Positions 16,296-23,179 of a DNA stretch of 36,890 nucleotides are shown one piece after another (within the stretch, counting starts at the first letter, position 1; each line of letters opens with the position of its first letter). Origin of the DNA: Candidatus Poribacteria bacterium (lineage in GTDB: Bacteria; Poribacteria; WGA-4E; WGA-3G). The stretch is taken from contig JAJEEK010000024.1 in assembly GCA_022821065.1 (NCBI GenBank), positions 1 through 36,890 on the forward strand. Reading direction: 5' to 3'. The notes beneath the pieces were generated by a model. That model was given only the letters and a program-made list of their open reading frames with translations. It searched no databases and was not told where the DNA came from. The position numbers and the translations under genes are program-made.

Positions 16296-17210
16296 TTGGA
16301 TACTTCAAATATGGATGCACAATTGAATCTACCTAAAGGTGTAAAAGCACGACTTGATCAAGGAAATCTGACTGGAGATATCGCCTTCTCACCCGACGGC
16401 ACGCAACTTGCAGTCGCCTGTGACATCGGCGTTTGGATTTATGATGTAGATAGCGGTTTGGGACTTAACCTTCTCGTGGAGCATAAGGAGTATGTGAGGT
16501 GTGTCGGCTTTTCACCTGATGGTACGGCAATCGCAAGTGGTGGTGTAGACAACACAGTTATTCTATGGGATGTCGTTGGCGGTATGCCGACAGCGACGCT
16601 CAAAGGACATACAGATGCTGTGAGAAGCGTCGTCTATTCACCAGACGGGACCACAGTCGCAAGTGGAAGTCCCGACGGCACAGTACGGTTATGGGACGCA
16701 AATACTGGGGAAGCAAAAAACGTTCTTGAAGGGCATACGAGTTCCGTTAGATGTCTTGCGTATTCTCCTGATGGCAGCACGCTTACTGCTGGAAGTGGAG
16801 ACGACACCGTCGTCCTCTGGGATGCTGCGACTGGAAGGCACAAAACTACACTCACAGGACATAAAGATATTGTCAATTCCATCGCGTATTCACCAGATGG
16901 GAGTACACTCGCAAGTGGAAGTATTGACGGTACAATTCGGTTGTGGAATATGTTTGAAAACAGTTTGATTACAACGCTTACAGGACATGTCGGCTACGTC
17001 TGGAGTGTCGCCTATTCACCGGATGGAAGCACGATCGCGAGCGGCGGACGAGACGAGATAGTGCGTTTGTGGGACGCAGAGACAGGTGAACCTAAAGGCG
17101 CACTCGCTGGACACACAAGGAGTGTCACGAATGTTCTATATGCGTCTGATGGGGATGTCATGGCGAGTGGGAGTGAAGACAACTCCGTCCTGCTCTGGGA
17201 TCTTACATAG
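16296..17210 (+). CDS. Seven-bladed WD40 repeat protein
   Basis: A 304-residue protein made almost entirely of WD40 repeats. Seven units are seen, each with a YSPDGxTxASG turn and an ending like TVRLWDAxTG, closing one beta-propeller. There is no signal peptide and no extra catalytic domain, so it is probably a cytoplasmic protein-binding scaffold. The unusually uniform repeats suggest recent internal duplication. I favour the TTG at 16296, because an AAGGAA ribosome site lies 11 bases before it; an ATG at 16311 is the alternative. It precedes the DUF1549/1553 gene on the same strand. Confidence 0.82.
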   Translation: MDTSNMDAQLNLPKGVKARLDQGNLTGDIAFSPDGTQLAVACDIGVWIYDVDSGLGLNLLVEHKEYVRCVGFSPDGTAIASGGVDNTVILWDVVGGMPTATLKGHTDAVRSVVYSPDGTTVASGSPDGTVRLWDANTGEAKNVLEGHTSSVRCLAYSPDGSTLTAGSGDDTVVLWDAATGRHKTTLTGHKDIVNSIAYSPDGSTLASGSIDGTIRLWNMFENSLITTLTGHVGYVWSVAYSPDGSTIASGGRDEIVRLWDAETGEPKGALAGHTRSVTNVLYASDGDVMASGSEDNSVLLWDLT

Positions 17211-17298
17211 ATTTTGGCGCAGAATTGATAATAAATAGTGTATGAGGCGTGAGAAAACTGAGTGAACATCTAATCGAAAAAACAACAGAAGATCTAAT

Positions 17299-17319
17299 AA
17301 GGAGGTCGGTGTCTCCTCC
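17299..17319 (+). promoter_or_regulatory. Hairpin over a strong ribosome site
   Basis: AAGGAGGT (17299-17306) is the best ribosome site in this gap. Its GGAGG can pair with CCTCC (17315-17319) around a 9-base loop. The nearest in-frame ATGs are 17327 and 17357, so the hairpin may control or shift initiation of the DUF1549 gene. Confidence 0.3.
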
Positions 17320-17356
17320 GTCAACTATGGTCGGGGGTACCTACGCCGAGTTTTTG

Positions 17357-19858
17357 ATGAAACCCAGGTATAACTTTTTAACAGTGCTTCTTGTTGCATT
17401 CTCTATCTGCTTCGCGTTCCACTTAACAGCGACGGGTGAGATGGCGCAGCCCGCGAGTACGATGGTTCCGACAGCAGATGAGTGGATTGCAAGCATTGCT
17501 CTAACGGAGTTAAAAGTCCATCCAGAAGCACTGGCATTAGAGCATGCACGCGACGGTAGGCGCGTACTTGTGTCGGGTAAGACGAAAGATGGTACATGGG
17601 TGGATGTAACACCGTGGGCAGTGTTGAAACCTGCGAATACCACCGTAAAGGTGCATGAAGATGGTTATATCTTCCCGGAATCTGTGGGCACAACGAACAT
17701 TGCCGTTACTGTTAAGGGTGTGAGCACTGAGTTCCCAGTTACCGTTAATAGTGTTGAAGCGCAACCCGTCAGTTTTGTGCGAGATGTCATGCCGCTCCTC
17801 AGCCACGCTGGGTGTAATAACGGCACATGCCACGGGGCAGCAAAAGGAAAAAATGGATTCAAACTTTCACTCCGCGGTTATGATCCCGATTTTGATTATG
17901 AACTTCTGATTGAGGATATATCCGGTAGACGTTTCAACCGAGCGTTCCCTGAACAGAGCCTAATGCTTCTCAAACCGACATCCGAAGTACCACACAAAGG
18001 TGGACAGGTCATTGTACCCGAATCACGCGATTACGAACTTATCCGCCAATGGATAGCAGAGGGCGCGAATTCTGATGTCGAAACGACGCAGCGGGTCGAA
18101 AGGTTAGAGGTCATACCGGGTTCCGCTGAACTCGCTATGCCAGGGATGAAGCAGCAACTGATAGTAATTGCGCACTATCCGGATGGTACCAAGCGCGATG
18201 TTACCCGTGAAGCGAAATTTACGAGCAGCGTCAATGAAGTCGCAAAAATTACTGACGACGGTGTCATAACCGCAGAACGCCGCGGCGAAACCGCTATCCT
18301 GACCCGATATGAAGGGGCATACAGTACGAACGGCATCATTGTCATGGGCGACAGGAGCGGATACAAATGGGTTGAAACGCCTGAATACAATTACATTGAT
18401 ACGCACGTACACAATAAACTCAAACGGATGAAAATCCTGCCATCTGATCTCTGCACCGATGAAGAGTTCGTACGACGTATCTATTTTGATCTCACAGGCT
18501 TACCACCGACCCCGGAGCAGGCTCGCAGCTTCCTCACCGATACCACGGATTCTAAAACCAAACGCGAAAAACTGATTGACACACTCGTCGAAACGCCTGA
18601 GTTTGTTGACCACTGGACGCATAAATGGGCAGACCTGTTACAGTCTAACCGTAAGTTCCTCGGGGAACGCGGTGTCTGGCTCTTCCGGCAGTGGATTCAT
18701 CAGGCTATTGCACAGAATCGTCCGTACGACGAATTCGTGCGGGACCTAATCACCGCAAGCGGAAGCACGTATCAGAATCCGGCTGCAAACTATTTCCGCG
18801 TTTCACGTGAGTATACGGCTGCTGTGGAGAATACAACGCAGCTCTTCTTAGGGGTTCGGTTCTCTTGCAACAAGTGCCACGATCATCCGTTTGAGAAGTG
18901 GACACAAAATCAGTATTATGAACTCGGGGCGTTTTTCGCTGATGTTGAGATAAAACCGGGGCAGCTACCCGGCGATGAAGTCGTCTACGCAAGTTACACG
19001 CCTCAGCCCGTGCAACACCCGCGAACACTAGCAGTTGTGAACCCGTCTGTCCCGTTTGGGGAAGTGACCGCACAAGTCGATAATAAGCAACAGATGCTCG
19101 CAACATGGCTTACTTCAAAGGACAACCCGATGTTCGCACGCGCAGGCGTAAACCGTATCTGGAGCTACTTCATGGGGCGCGGGATTATTGAACCCGTTGA
19201 CGACATCCGAACAAGTAATCCGCCGAGTAACCCCGAACTGCTTGAGGCGTTGACGAAAGATTTCGTGGACAGTGGGTTTGACATGAAACATATCATGAAG
19301 ACAATCACCCGCTCACGAGCTTATCAACAGAGCATCAAGACGAATAAGTGGAACAAGTCAGATACGATTAACTTCTCACACGCCGTGGCAAGACGCTTAA
19401 CGGCTGAACAGTTGTTAGATGCTATCGGTGTCGCAACAGGAAGTCGACCACGCTTCCAAGAAGTACCCAAAAACTTCCGCGCAGCCCAATTACCAGATAG
19501 TAAGGTCAAAGATGACGGATTTTTGAAACTGTTTGGCAGGCCCGAACGCGAGACCTCTTGTGAATGTGAGCGCACAACCGAGGTCAGTCTCGCACACGCA
19601 ATGAACCTTATTAATGGACCCACGGTCGCAGAGGCACTTATTGATCCAGAAGGACGTGTCGCAAAACTTATTAAAACGAATCAAGATGACCGAGTGCTCG
19701 TTGAAGAACTATATCTTGCAACACTTTCTCGGTTACCAGAGAAGAACGAATACGCGGTAGCGGTTGAATATATCGCGAACGCTAAATCGAAAGAAGAAGG
19801 CGTACAAGATTTGCTTTGGGCGTTAATCAACAGTCCCGCCTTCTTGTTCAATCGCTAA
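17357..19858 (+). CDS. DUF1549/DUF1553 exported protein with heme c-type motifs
   Basis: A large exported protein of the planctomycete cytochrome c/DUF1549/DUF1553 family. After the signal peptide (about 1-28) comes a Big-type immunoglobulin-like domain. A PSCyt1-like segment with CNNGTCHGAAKGKNGFKLS follows, then a second Big-like domain (about 245-325), DUF1549 with CNKCHDHPFEKWTQ, and DUF1553 with GRPERETSCECERTTE and AMNLINGP. The family is almost always paired with a DUF1501 protein, which follows here after 21 bases. It is thought to act in the periplasm on polysaccharide- or heme-linked chemistry, but no enzyme activity is established. The start is uncertain: I prefer ATG 17357 for its signal peptide, but ATG 17327 or GTG 17249 would lengthen it in frame. 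Confidence 0.85.
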   Translation: MKPRYNFLTVLLVAFSICFAFHLTATGEMAQPASTMVPTADEWIASIALTELKVHPEALALEHARDGRRVLVSGKTKDGTWVDVTPWAVLKPANTTVKVHEDGYIFPESVGTTNIAVTVKGVSTEFPVTVNSVEAQPVSFVRDVMPLLSHAGCNNGTCHGAAKGKNGFKLSLRGYDPDFDYELLIEDISGRRFNRAFPEQSLMLLKPTSEVPHKGGQVIVPESRDYELIRQWIAEGANSDVETTQRVERLEVIPGSAELAMPGMKQQLIVIAHYPDGTKRDVTREAKFTSSVNEVAKITDDGVITAERRGETAILTRYEGAYSTNGIIVMGDRSGYKWVETPEYNYIDTHVHNKLKRMKILPSDLCTDEEFVRRIYFDLTGLPPTPEQARSFLTDTTDSKTKREKLIDTLVETPEFVDHWTHKWADLLQSNRKFLGERGVWLFRQWIHQAIAQNRPYDEFVRDLITASGSTYQNPAANYFRVSREYTAAVENTTQLFLGVRFSCNKCHDHPFEKWTQNQYYELGAFFADVEIKPGQLPGDEVVYASYTPQPVQHPRTLAVVNPSVPFGEVTAQVDNKQQMLATWLTSKDNPMFARAGVNRIWSYFMGRGIIEPVDDIRTSNPPSNPELLEALTKDFVDSGFDMKHIMKTITRSRAYQQSIKTNKWNKSDTINFSHAVARRLTAEQLLDAIGVATGSRPRFQEVPKNFRAAQLPDSKVKDDGFLKLFGRPERETSCECERTTEVSLAHAMNLINGPTVAEALIDPEGRVAKLIKTNQDDRVLVEELYLATLSRLPEKNEYAVAVEYIANAKSKEEGVQDLLWALINSPAFLFNR

Positions 19859-19879
19859 CCATAACGGAGGACACAATAG

Positions 19880-21325
19880 ATGTTATCGTTACCACAATTA
19901 CCCGGACGCTTATGTGACGGGTTCTCACGTCGTGAATTTCTACGTGTCGGTGGTGCGGCGATGCTCGGCATTAGTCTGCCACAAGTATTGTCACTCCAAG
20001 CGAACGCGAATACGGCAGTTGACCCCGCTAAACCGCTAAACGGATGGGGGAAAGCCAACTCGGTCATTCTCCTCTTCCTACAAGGCGGTCCAAGCCATCT
20101 CGATATCTGGGATCCGAAACCGGAAGCACCGTCAAACATTCGCGGCGAATTCAAGCCGATTCCAACCAATGTGAAAGGAATCCAACTCTCTGAAACTATG
20201 CCGCGTTTGGCGCAGCAGATGGACAAAGCCTGTTTGATCCGTTCCGTAAGTTATACACCGGCTGGACTCTTCAACCATACCGCTGCAATGTATCAGATGG
20301 TTACCGGTGAAACACCGGATAAGGTCGCACCGTCAGGGCAGCTGGATCCGCCTTCACCTGCTGACCACCCCAACGCCGCAGCACATATCGCCAACTACAG
20401 ACCACCGGATGAACCGATGCTCGCCGCTGTCCAACTGCCGCGGCCCATGCAAGAGAGTAACATCATCGGTAAAGGCGGGAACGCCGGTTTCCTCGGTAGA
20501 GCGTACGATCCGTACTTCCTCTTCCAAGATCCGAATCAGGAAATTAATCTTGACGATTTGAGTTTACGTCCAGAGGTGCCACCTGTGCGTCTGAAACGCC
20601 GGAAAGATCTCCTTGAAACGATTAATGCCGGTATGCCCGAAATTGACAAGGTAGCGGACTCCTATGCCTTGAACGAATATTATGAGAAGGCGTACAACCT
20701 TATCTTGTCGCAACGTGCACGCAATGCTTTCGATTTGTCTCAAGAACCAGATGAGATGCGAGATAAGTACGGTAGACATACCTTCGGACAGAGTGCACTC
20801 CTTGCCCGACGGTTAGTCGAAGCAGGCACCCGTTTCGTTCAGGTAAACTGGCCCTCTGTCGCAAACGGTAATCCGAACACGACCGCATGGGATACACACG
20901 CAACCAACTTCGGTCCCCTGAAAAACCTTCACTGTCCGAAGTTAGACAGCGCGGTCTCCTCACTGCTTGAAGATTTGGATCAACGCGGACTTTTAGAAGA
21001 AACGCTCGTCTTGGCTATCGGTGAATTCGGACGCTCCCCGAGGATGGGGATTAGCACATCCGGGAACAGCAACGCACCTGATGGACGCGATCACTGGCCC
21101 TATTGCTATACAGGATTGATCGCAGGTGCAGGTGTCCGAGGTGGACAAGTTTACGGAAAATCCGATGCAACAGGTTCAACACCACTTGAAAACCCGGTGC
21201 ATCCGCGCGACATCCTCGCCACGGTCTACCATACGCTTGGTATTGACCCGCACACCATCGTTTACAATCATTTAGATCAACCCCGTGAATTGGTGAAAGG
21301 CGAACCGATTGTAGGAATCTTTTAA
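19880..21325 (+). CDS. DUF1501 Tat-exported protein
   Basis: A 481-residue DUF1501 protein, related to the alkaline phosphatase/sulfatase superfamily. The N-terminus carries a twin-arginine signal, SRREFLRVGGAAMLG. Family motifs include LFLQGGPSHLDIWDPKP near the N-terminus, IGEFGRSPRMG, and DGRDHWPYCYTGLIAGAG near the C-terminus. Export folded by Tat fits a metalloprotein. It follows the DUF1549/1553 gene by 21 bases with a CGGAGGA ribosome site, the standard two-gene unit of planctomycete-like bacteria. The exact substrate of these pairs is not established. Confidence 0.88.
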   Translation: MLSLPQLPGRLCDGFSRREFLRVGGAAMLGISLPQVLSLQANANTAVDPAKPLNGWGKANSVILLFLQGGPSHLDIWDPKPEAPSNIRGEFKPIPTNVKGIQLSETMPRLAQQMDKACLIRSVSYTPAGLFNHTAAMYQMVTGETPDKVAPSGQLDPPSPADHPNAAAHIANYRPPDEPMLAAVQLPRPMQESNIIGKGGNAGFLGRAYDPYFLFQDPNQEINLDDLSLRPEVPPVRLKRRKDLLETINAGMPEIDKVADSYALNEYYEKAYNLILSQRARNAFDLSQEPDEMRDKYGRHTFGQSALLARRLVEAGTRFVQVNWPSVANGNPNTTAWDTHATNFGPLKNLHCPKLDSAVSSLLEDLDQRGLLEETLVLAIGEFGRSPRMGISTSGNSNAPDGRDHWPYCYTGLIAGAGVRGGQVYGKSDATGSTPLENPVHPRDILATVYHTLGIDPHTIVYNHLDQPRELVKGEPIVGIF

Positions 21326-21479: not shown

Positions 21480-21550
21480 TATCTAATAGATTTTTTAGAT
21501 TTTTTTGCAAGTACTGATGGCTCAAGAGATTCCAAAGTTCTGAGGAAGAT

Positions 21551-23179
21551 ATGAAACCAACCTGCAACAAAATCGCGCTTAATATTGATGGTGATACCAA
21601 AGTTTCCATCAAAGGCTTCATCGCTCCGATTGAATATACCTTAGCTAATTACCACGTGGCGTATGAGTGGAACGAGTTAGCGAATCTCCGAGTCGCTGCA
21701 CCAGAAAAAGAGTATTCCGCATCCATTTTTCGCGCGTTTCTGCCAGACGAAGCGGTGTCTGTTGGCACTCTTTGGCAGATTGAACAAACAGGTGCTCTTG
21801 AACTGCTGCGGCAACTTCACCCGAACCCACATTTGGATATGCGTGGTTACGGGGATCCCGGGTTGTGGGCTTGCCTGCGTGCTTACACTGATGAATTCGC
21901 AGATATTGTATTTCGTATTCATGCAGAATTCAAGTTAGGTGATGGGTGGTTCACGCCTTCACAGTTTACGGGACATCTCATTATCAACCGTCTGGAGGAG
22001 ACAGTCTCGTTCTTTCAGATGCGCCTACCGGACGGTCCTGTGAACTTTGAGGTTGGCTGGCAGGACGAAAAGAGTTGGGATGACTTCAACGAGATTATGG
22101 ATACCGGTTTCTGTGCACAAATGGAACTCCGTATTGGTGCCGAAGCCGTTTTGCAAGACATCACAACCCATTTGGAAAGTGCAATGAGCGGCTCTACCTC
22201 CATCACGCAGGAGAAAGTCGAGCGTGCGCTAAACTGTCAGTTTTACAAATCGGAACAAATCGATTGGGTGCCGATGGAGGCGGCGTTGGAATTAGCACAA
22301 GTACAGCAGAAACCGATTCACGCCATTTCCATAGATGGACCTTTGGTAGACGAAACTTGCTGAGGGAGTGGTAAAGCCCTGAGGTCAGGTGCTCTCTCCG
22401 ACGAACAAACTATAAAATTCTTGAATGAACACTTTATCAACACATGGGTGTCCAATGTTGCCTTCGGGCGCACGCCAAACCAGCGTGCCTACCTTGCCCA
22501 GAGAATTCAGCACGGCTTCAAGGGGGTTGACACAATACATCCGTTGGCACAAGCTGTCATAGACGGATGGCATCTACACGCACCGGTAGATTGTTTGGTT
22601 ATCTCGCCTGAACTTGAACTGATGGGTAGGCAAGATGCTAATCAGCTCTTCGGAGATTGCATGGATAAGGGGCTGTCTCAAGCGAAGGGGTACCGCCTCT
22701 TTTTATCGGAAGCCTTATCAGGAAAACGCCCTGGTTTGGGTAGAATTGTCCTCACCGCTGTGTGTCCTTCAGTGGAGGTAATGGACACTTTTCATACCCC
22801 TATGGTACCGCATCAGGACTACACTATCGTAGAGATTGATGCCACGGCGTTTGAAGACGGTGGGACGCTTACGCTGGATATTGGCGTTGGGAGAGGAAAA
22901 GCGGAAGGGACTTTCTATTTATTTGATGGCGACAAAAACCTCCCGACAGAAAAAGCTCCTAAAGGTGTATCTACTTCTGTCTGGGAGCGTCAACAAGGCG
23001 ATGCTTATGTGGAAGCTCTCGGTGCCCTCGCCACAAAATGGCATATTGGTCCCGAAAAAACGGGAAAAATTACATGCCTTTTTGATCAAGGCAAGTTGTT
23101 TCGCTTGTGTATTACTGGGAGTCCATACAGTGTGAAAGGGAGCCGCAATGCTTTCAGCCTCAAAATTTCTGTTTCTTAA
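21551..23179 (+). CDS. Predicted selenoprotein, SELENON-like thioredoxin-fold protein (Cys-Sec motif)
   Basis: A 542-residue protein if the TGA at 22361-22363 is selenocysteine (residue 271). The upstream frame ends KPIHAISIDGPLVDETC and the downstream frame begins GSGKALRSGALSDEQTIKFL then NEHFINTWV, in the same frame and without any other stop. Together this makes C-Sec-GSGK in a thioredoxin-like setting. It matches the SCUGSGRTLR redox site and following NExFxxTW segment of animal SELENON. The first 240 residues and the last 230 (including LVISPELELMG and a beta-rich C-terminus) match no family I know. No signal peptide is visible. A GAGGAAG ribosome site precedes the ATG. A SECIS-like stem-loop follows the TGA. 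It is probably an oxidoreductase; the partner is unknown. Conventional annotation would give two unrelated hypotheticals. Confidence 0.85.
22361..22393 (+). promoter_or_regulatory. UGA(Sec) codon and candidate bacterial SECIS element 2
   Basis: The TGA (22361-22363) is followed 18 bases later by the loop AGGT (22382-22385). The loop closes a stem, CCTG/CAGG, that extends through one bulged T (22390) to AGC/GCT (22375-22377 with 22391-22393). An AGGU-type apical loop and a bulged U are both features of the E. coli fdhF SECIS, although the bulge is on the opposite side here. Confidence 0.7.

What the first reader, a model, noticed from the sequence alone, without database searches (positions are those of the whole stretch)
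21551..23179. Bacterial SELENON-like selenoprotein hidden as two hypothetical ORFs
Seen: two frames join across TGA 22361 with no other stop, giving ETC-Sec-GSGKALR...LNEHFINTW. The Cys before the TGA and the GSGK after it reproduce the animal SELENON redox site (SCUGSGRTLR, then NExFxxTW). A stem-loop with AGGT loop and a bulged T lies 18 bases downstream. The flanking ~240 and ~230 residue regions are unrecognised. Usual annotation would end the first ORF one residue before the active Sec and start the second at a false TTG.
Basis: partly seen in the sequence, partly recalled or inferred. Interest (0 to 1): 0.93.

Follow-up and report, generated by a model that had tools for sequence, protein, structure and literature searches.

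The report
Bacterial selenoprotein N gene, split by annotation
This bacterial gene, which gene calling cuts in two at a UGA codon, is a relative of vertebrate selenoprotein N (the protein behind SEPN1 muscle disease) and is predicted to carry selenocysteine at the same site; related bacteria hold up to 15 copies of its motif per genome, so they would be a place to learn what this poorly understood protein does.

Summary
One frame runs 21551-23179 with a single in-frame TGA (22361), directly after a Cys codon. Relatives name the genome as Candidatus Poribacteria. The protein aligns with vertebrate SELENON over residues 14-390, on both sides of the TGA (hhalign E 1.9e-52), so the flanks called unrecognised are SELENON too. 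Residues 393-542 are an extra beta-sandwich; SELENON's membrane anchor and EF-hand are absent. TGA fills the site in 108 of 108 segments of the first set and in 8 of 8 syntenic orthologues (dN/dS 0.23 after it). The flanking motif occurs 392 times with TGA in 64 of 84 Poribacteria genomes, and not with TAA, TAG, TGC, TGT or TGG. A hairpin after the TGA pairs fully in 96 of 101 sequences, against 4.9 in synonymous recodings; the five exceptions include the window gene, which forms a variant. selA, selB, selC and selD are present. Some paralogues are fused to ECF sigma factors or redoxins; some have Gly, Thr, Trp or Cys instead of Sec. Sec insertion and redox activity are inferred. No report of bacterial SELENON was found in the open-licence papers searched. 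Filed as a SELENON-like variant, not SELENON in the strict sense.

The parts
21551..23179 (+). Whole SELENON-like coding sequence, 542 residues with TGA 22361 read as selenocysteine (stop TAA included)
   Evidence: orthologues in synteny and dN/dS on both sides
21542..21548 (+). Possible ribosome binding site GAGGAAG, two bases before the ATG (short spacing); in-frame TGA stop upstream at 21515
   Evidence: sequence; inference
21590..22252 (+). N-terminal SELENON-homologous domain (residues about 14-234), beta-rich
   Evidence: hhalign of residues 1-238 alone to vertebrate SELENON 99.9, E 1.4e-33, aligned from residue 48; model pLDDT 88.7
22253..22726 (+). Predicted thioredoxin-fold domain, residues about 235-392, carrying the Cys-Sec pair
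22358..22363 (+). Redox pair: TGC Cys270 then TGA Sec271 (predicted)
   Evidence: TGA in 108 of 108 segments, TGC/TGT before it in 108 of 108
22375..22393 (+).
22381..22396 (+). Alternative hairpin in the register shared by the family (5 of 6 pairs in this gene; 6 of 6 in 96 of 101 distinct sequences when loop 4 or loop 6 is allowed)
22727..23176 (+). C-terminal PPC/GOLD-like beta-sandwich module (residues 393-542), outside the SELENON alignment; in relatives also duplicated, and on ECF sigma proteins

Best explanation
The two ORFs are one gene for a 542-residue SELENON-like protein in which UGA 22361 is predicted to be read as selenocysteine, giving a Cys270-Sec271 pair in a predicted thioredoxin fold that would act as a thiol-disulfide oxidoreductase. 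Shown: one conserved frame through the TGA, homology to vertebrate SELENON on both sides, selA/selB/selC/selD in the genome, and an RNA hairpin after the TGA that is conserved beyond protein coding in the family. Inferred: SelB with Sec-tRNA binds the hairpin and inserts Sec; the adjacent Cys resolves Sec as a selenylsulfide; the N-terminal beta domain positions a protein partner; the C-terminal beta-sandwich is a binding module. This copy has no hydrophobic segment of membrane type (maximum 19-residue hydropathy 1.17), so it would work in the cytosol, while sister copies with lipoprotein-like or membrane-anchored architectures would work outside the membrane.
For: Frame and single TGA. TGA in 108 of 108 distinct segments (137 extracted, 29 identical or contained ones dropped) and one in-frame TGA in the window gene plus 9 close orthologues (78-88% identical). 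Motif with TGA: 392 sites in 64 of 84 genomes, reversed-pattern control 0; the same motif with TAA/TAG 0 of 84, with TGC/TGG/TGT 0 of 84. Arg codon in the hairpin AGG 91, AGA 17, CGN 0 of 108, while CGN is 2017 of 2850 elsewhere in the same ORFs. 6/6 stem in 96 of 101 versus 4.9 +/- 2.3 (maximum 14 in 300 runs) in synonymous recodings. dN/dS after the TGA median 0.23, range 0.19-0.34, 28 pairs of 8 orthologues; before it 0.20. SELENON: BLASTP 29% over 299 aa, E 1e-34; hhalign E 1.9e-52 whole, 1.4e-33 upstream only, 8.1e-11 downstream only. tRNA-Sec 76.4 bits (cut-off 47), SelB 362.5 (242), SelA 597 (268), SelD 362.5 (125). Predicted thioredoxin fold. Of 120 listed database hits (1915 in all), the 100 under 300 aa all end in Cys, at the place before the Sec site.
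Against: No protein or 75Se data. By generic SECIS criteria 80 of 101 pass against 36.8 +/- 4.6 in recodings, and this one gene is not distinguished from its own recodings (381 of 1000 pass). The five sequences short of 6/6 are the window gene (5 of 6) and four of its orthologues. Sec is not kept everywhere: in the P0002 group 8 of 13 genomes have one in-frame TGA and 5 have none, and 4 of 52 distinct stretches of the second set have Gly codons. Those four Gly copies keep the stem 6/6, so the stem is not a clean marker of Sec use. Four of the 42 tested genomes with the family (G025, G031, G034, G035) have no tRNA-Sec over cut-off. selB and selC occur in relatives without the family too, so their presence does not discriminate. 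Redox function is by predicted fold and homology only.
Confidence: 0.85

Rival explanations
1. TGA is a true stop and two separate proteins are made, the second by reinitiation at TTG 22421.
For: Gene callers produce exactly this split and the database holds N-terminal and C-terminal pieces of relatives.
Against: If a stop were all that was needed, TAA or TAG should appear; 0 of 84 genomes have one in the exact motif against 392 TGA sites. Residues 272-290, which the second ORF would lose, include G274, K275, L277, R278, L282 and I288, invariant in 11 of 11 diverse members, and SELENON aligns across the site.
Confidence: 0.04
2. TGA is reassigned to a standard amino acid in this lineage, or read through nonspecifically.
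For: TGA is read through in a conserved frame.
Against: TGA ends 2 of 8 Pfam-recognised genes in the window; a complete selABCD set is present; the hairpin is under selection at RNA level in the family.
Confidence: 0.03
3. It is a Sec protein, but the SELENON likeness is convergent on a generic thioredoxin-fold motif.
For: The Sec domain has the common thioredoxin fold in the model (DsbH, AGR2/3).
Against: Residues 1-238 alone, ahead of the thioredoxin domain, match SELENON at E 1.4e-33.
Confidence: 0.02
4. It is a Sec-containing SELENON relative whose main role is redox sensing rather than catalysis, with the copies serving membrane-bound ECF sigma factors (overlaps with the best explanation; concerns role only).
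For: An ECF sigma-hydrophobic segment-SELENON fusion in this genome with many database relatives, and ECF sigma proteins carrying only the C-terminal module beside Sec genes.
Against: None of the nine neighbouring window genes scanned is a sigma factor; the sigma fusion placed in the tree (P0243) is in the other clade.
Confidence: 0.25

Closest known systems
SELENON (selenoprotein N, SEPN1) of vertebrates
   Same: Same order of domains over residues 14-390; Cys-Sec-Gly redox site, then LR...LNExFI.TW. SCUG motif and Sec position from passages of PMC12839072.
   Different: No EF-hand and no membrane segment before residue 14; extra C-terminal beta-sandwich; hairpin inside the coding frame rather than a SECIS in the 3' UTR; many copies per genome.
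SELENON of algae
   Same: Sec-containing relatives reported outside animals (passages of PMC7539508).
   Different: Eukaryotic; sequences not compared here.
DsbH / thioredoxin-like oxidoreductases and AGR2/AGR3
   Different: Redox motif is adjacent Cys-Sec, not CxxC (CxxC recalled); 15-18% identity; large N-terminal domain.
Bacterial selenoproteins in the 2026 catalogue (PMC13188914)
   Same: In-frame UGA with a hairpin obeying the published limits on loop, stem and spacing (passages).
   Different: Term searches of that text for selenoprotein N, SelN, SELENON and Poribacter found no such entry.

Membership tests
Selenoprotein | In-frame TGA conserved in homologues | tested here: met
   108 of 108 segments; 8 of 8 orthologues; lost in some paralogue groups
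Selenoprotein | Bacterial SECIS: loop 3-9, stem 4-16 bp, G in first two loop positions, 16-37 nt from UGA, MFE at most -7.5 | tested here: met
   window gene passes, but so do 381 of 1000 of its recodings; 80 of 101 family members pass, recodings 36.8; criteria from PMC13188914
Selenoprotein | selA, selB, selC, selD in the genome | tested here: met
   all over cut-off in G000
Selenoprotein | Selenium found in the protein | not testable with these tools
   needs 75Se or mass spectrometry
SELENON | Homologous luminal region on both sides of Sec | tested here: met
SELENON | xCUG redox motif | tested here: met
   TCUG here; Cys-Sec followed by Gly (95) or Ala (13) in 108 of 108
SELENON | N-terminal membrane anchor and EF-hand (animal SELENON) | tested here: not met
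   only 13 residues precede the aligned part, which starts at SELENON residue 119; no hydrophobic segment of membrane type; hence filed as SELENON-like
SELENON | Redox control of SERCA and calcium sensing | not testable with these tools
   animal function; no bacterial equivalent tested
Thioredoxin fold | Fold of residues 235-392 | tested here: met
PPC / GOLD-like beta-sandwich | Fold of residues 393-542 | tested here: inconclusive

The most novel reading that the evidence does not exclude
The SELENON core is a bacterial selenocysteine redox-sensing module: in Poribacteria it is amplified into operons and wired straight to transcription by fusion to membrane-anchored ECF sigma factors, and the calcium-sensing, EF-hand form of animals is a later derivative of that module.
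Probability: 0.22. Interest if true: 0.93.

Novelty: new variant of a known kind. Interest (0 to 1): 0.78.

Why it matters
Loss of SELENON causes a human myopathy (abstract of PMC12839072). To my knowledge its enzymology is unsettled, and a profile of vertebrate SELENON finds no solved structure (one chance-level hit, E 0.51), nor does the bacterial profile. A soluble bacterial version without membrane anchor and EF-hand would make the core open to structure and assay. The family is also a large hidden set: 392 motif sites in 64 of 84 Poribacteria genomes, with 100 of 120 listed database hits being stumps that end at the Sec site, and no NCBIfam model over 31 scanned members beyond one weak hit. 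The fusions to sigma factors and redoxins give testable hints of what the module does.

Full report
What is there. The window (G000:C109, 36,890 bases) belongs to a 5.14 Mb, 124-contig genome. The loci of the gene found in named genomes, up to 88% identical, are all Poribacteria MAGs (18 of 18). From ATG 21551 one frame runs to TAA 23179 with a single TGA at 22361, right after a TGC. Ordinary ORF calling gives 270 aa plus 252 aa.

Translation continues past the TGA. I compared gene order in 8 of the 18 loci (L038-L045): seven share the order PSCyt2, DUF1501, SELENON-like, PPC protein, TGT with the window; the eighth shows none of the four neighbours. In the seven and the window the TGA is kept 8 of 8, and dN/dS after it is 0.23 (0.19-0.34, 28 pairs), against 0.20 before it. 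In the wider family, 137 segments were extracted and 108 remained after dropping identical or contained ones; all 108 have TGA at this column. Because those ORFs were cut at TAA and TAG, that count could not have shown TAA or TAG, so I searched the genomes with a pattern drawn from these sequences: with TGA 392 sites in 64 of 84 genomes and no hit of the reversed pattern; with TAA/TAG none in 84; with TGC/TGG/TGT none in 84 (two reversed-pattern hits). The pattern demands exact flanks, so it misses variants. The 64 genomes are the same ones that have protein matches. Sec is not universal: a second set of 52 distinct stretches, 22 of them already in the first and partly drawn with a Gly copy as bait, has 48 TGA and 4 Gly codons, and in the P0002 group 8 of 13 genomes keep a TGA and 5 do not.

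Selenocysteine. The genome has tRNA-Sec with anticodon TCA (76.4 bits), beside SelB (362.5 bits), plus SelA and SelD over cut-off. TGA is also an ordinary stop: 2 of 8 recognised genes in the window end with it. The RNA after the TGA is constrained beyond the protein: the Arg codon in the stem is AGG or AGA in 108 of 108 although CGN makes up 2017 of 2850 other Arg codons, and a 6-pair stem forms in 96 of 101 distinct sequences against 4.9 +/- 2.3 in 300 runs of synonymous recoding. I chose the register after looking at these data; the same rule was applied to the recodings, and relatedness inflates the contrast. The five exceptions are the window gene and four of its orthologues. With the published general criteria (PMC13188914, passages) the contrast is smaller, 80 of 101 against 36.8 +/- 4.6, and for this gene alone it is not significant (381 of 1000 recodings pass).

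A family with architecture. The genome has nine TGA-bearing sites by pattern. Other genomes have up to 15; in L070 eight genes lie head to tail with gaps of -64 to 122 bases by ORF calling. The tree has two deep poribacterial clades: the window's, and one whose members include the redoxin fusion L005 and the sigma fusion P0243. In this genome L067 joins an ECF sigma factor, a hydrophobic segment (hydropathy 2.35) and a SELENON-like domain; L005 joins SELENON-like and AhpC/TSA redoxin; L062 starts with a lipoprotein-like signal, read by eye. Of 22 listed database proteins of 540-584 aa, 20 end in Cys at the place before the Sec site. Of the copies without Sec that I resolved, 14 have Gly, one Thr, one Trp and one, a sigma fusion, Cys; P0017 was not resolved. 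The C-terminal module also sits on ECF sigma proteins just after Sec genes (L079 17524-18852).

How it likely works. Inferred: SelB-directed Sec insertion; Cys270 and Sec271 cycle as selenylsulfide and selenol-thiol. PMC12839072 (passages) calls the SCUG motif of SELENON its catalytic site with oxidoreductase activity; the selenylsulfide step is my inference. Targets are unknown. The lack of EF-hand and anchor means calcium sensing by that route is not part of the core.

Verdict. A well-supported bacterial SELENON-like selenoprotein family; a new variant of a known kind. No earlier report was found in the searches listed, which cover open-licence papers only.

Noticed in passing
L067 4088-6172 (G000:C43): ECF sigma factor, hydrophobic segment and SELENON-like Sec domain in one frame; database relatives of 576-581 aa whose ends I read stop in the Cys before the Sec site.
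   Followed up: partly
L005 1312-3213 (G000:C6): SELENON-like Sec domain fused to an AhpC/TSA-redoxin domain; database relatives of about 351-391 aa are C-terminal pieces, some named TlpA family, and the one read (P0244) starts inside the hairpin.
   Followed up: partly
L070 3733-17105 (G033:C38): Eight TGA-bearing SELENON-like genes head to tail between an IMP dehydrogenase gene and a polysaccharide deacetylase gene on the other strand.
   Followed up: partly
L094, L095, L096, L100; P0002-P0018, P0242, P0243: Copies whose Sec is replaced by Gly, Thr or Trp rather than Cys; one sigma fusion has Cys-Cys. In the P0002 group 8 of 13 genomes keep a TGA.
   Followed up: partly
L079 17524-18852; L075 13897-15222: ECF sigma proteins carrying only the C-terminal beta-sandwich module, downstream of Sec genes.
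   Followed up: partly
L122 (G000:C4:27473-28396): The genome's own SelD gene has an in-frame TGA, so SelD may be a selenoprotein too.
   Followed up: no
G025, G031, G034, G035 (L130-L133): Genomes with the family but no tRNA-Sec over cut-off; in G031 it is absent beside selB, in the others the selB match is partial or at a contig end.
   Followed up: partly
window 17249-21325: PSCyt2/PSD1 and DUF1501 gene pair directly upstream, in conserved order with the Sec gene in seven other MAGs; functional link unknown.
   Followed up: partly
window 16296-17210: WD40 beta-propeller protein with strong likeness to eukaryotic propeller models.
   Followed up: no
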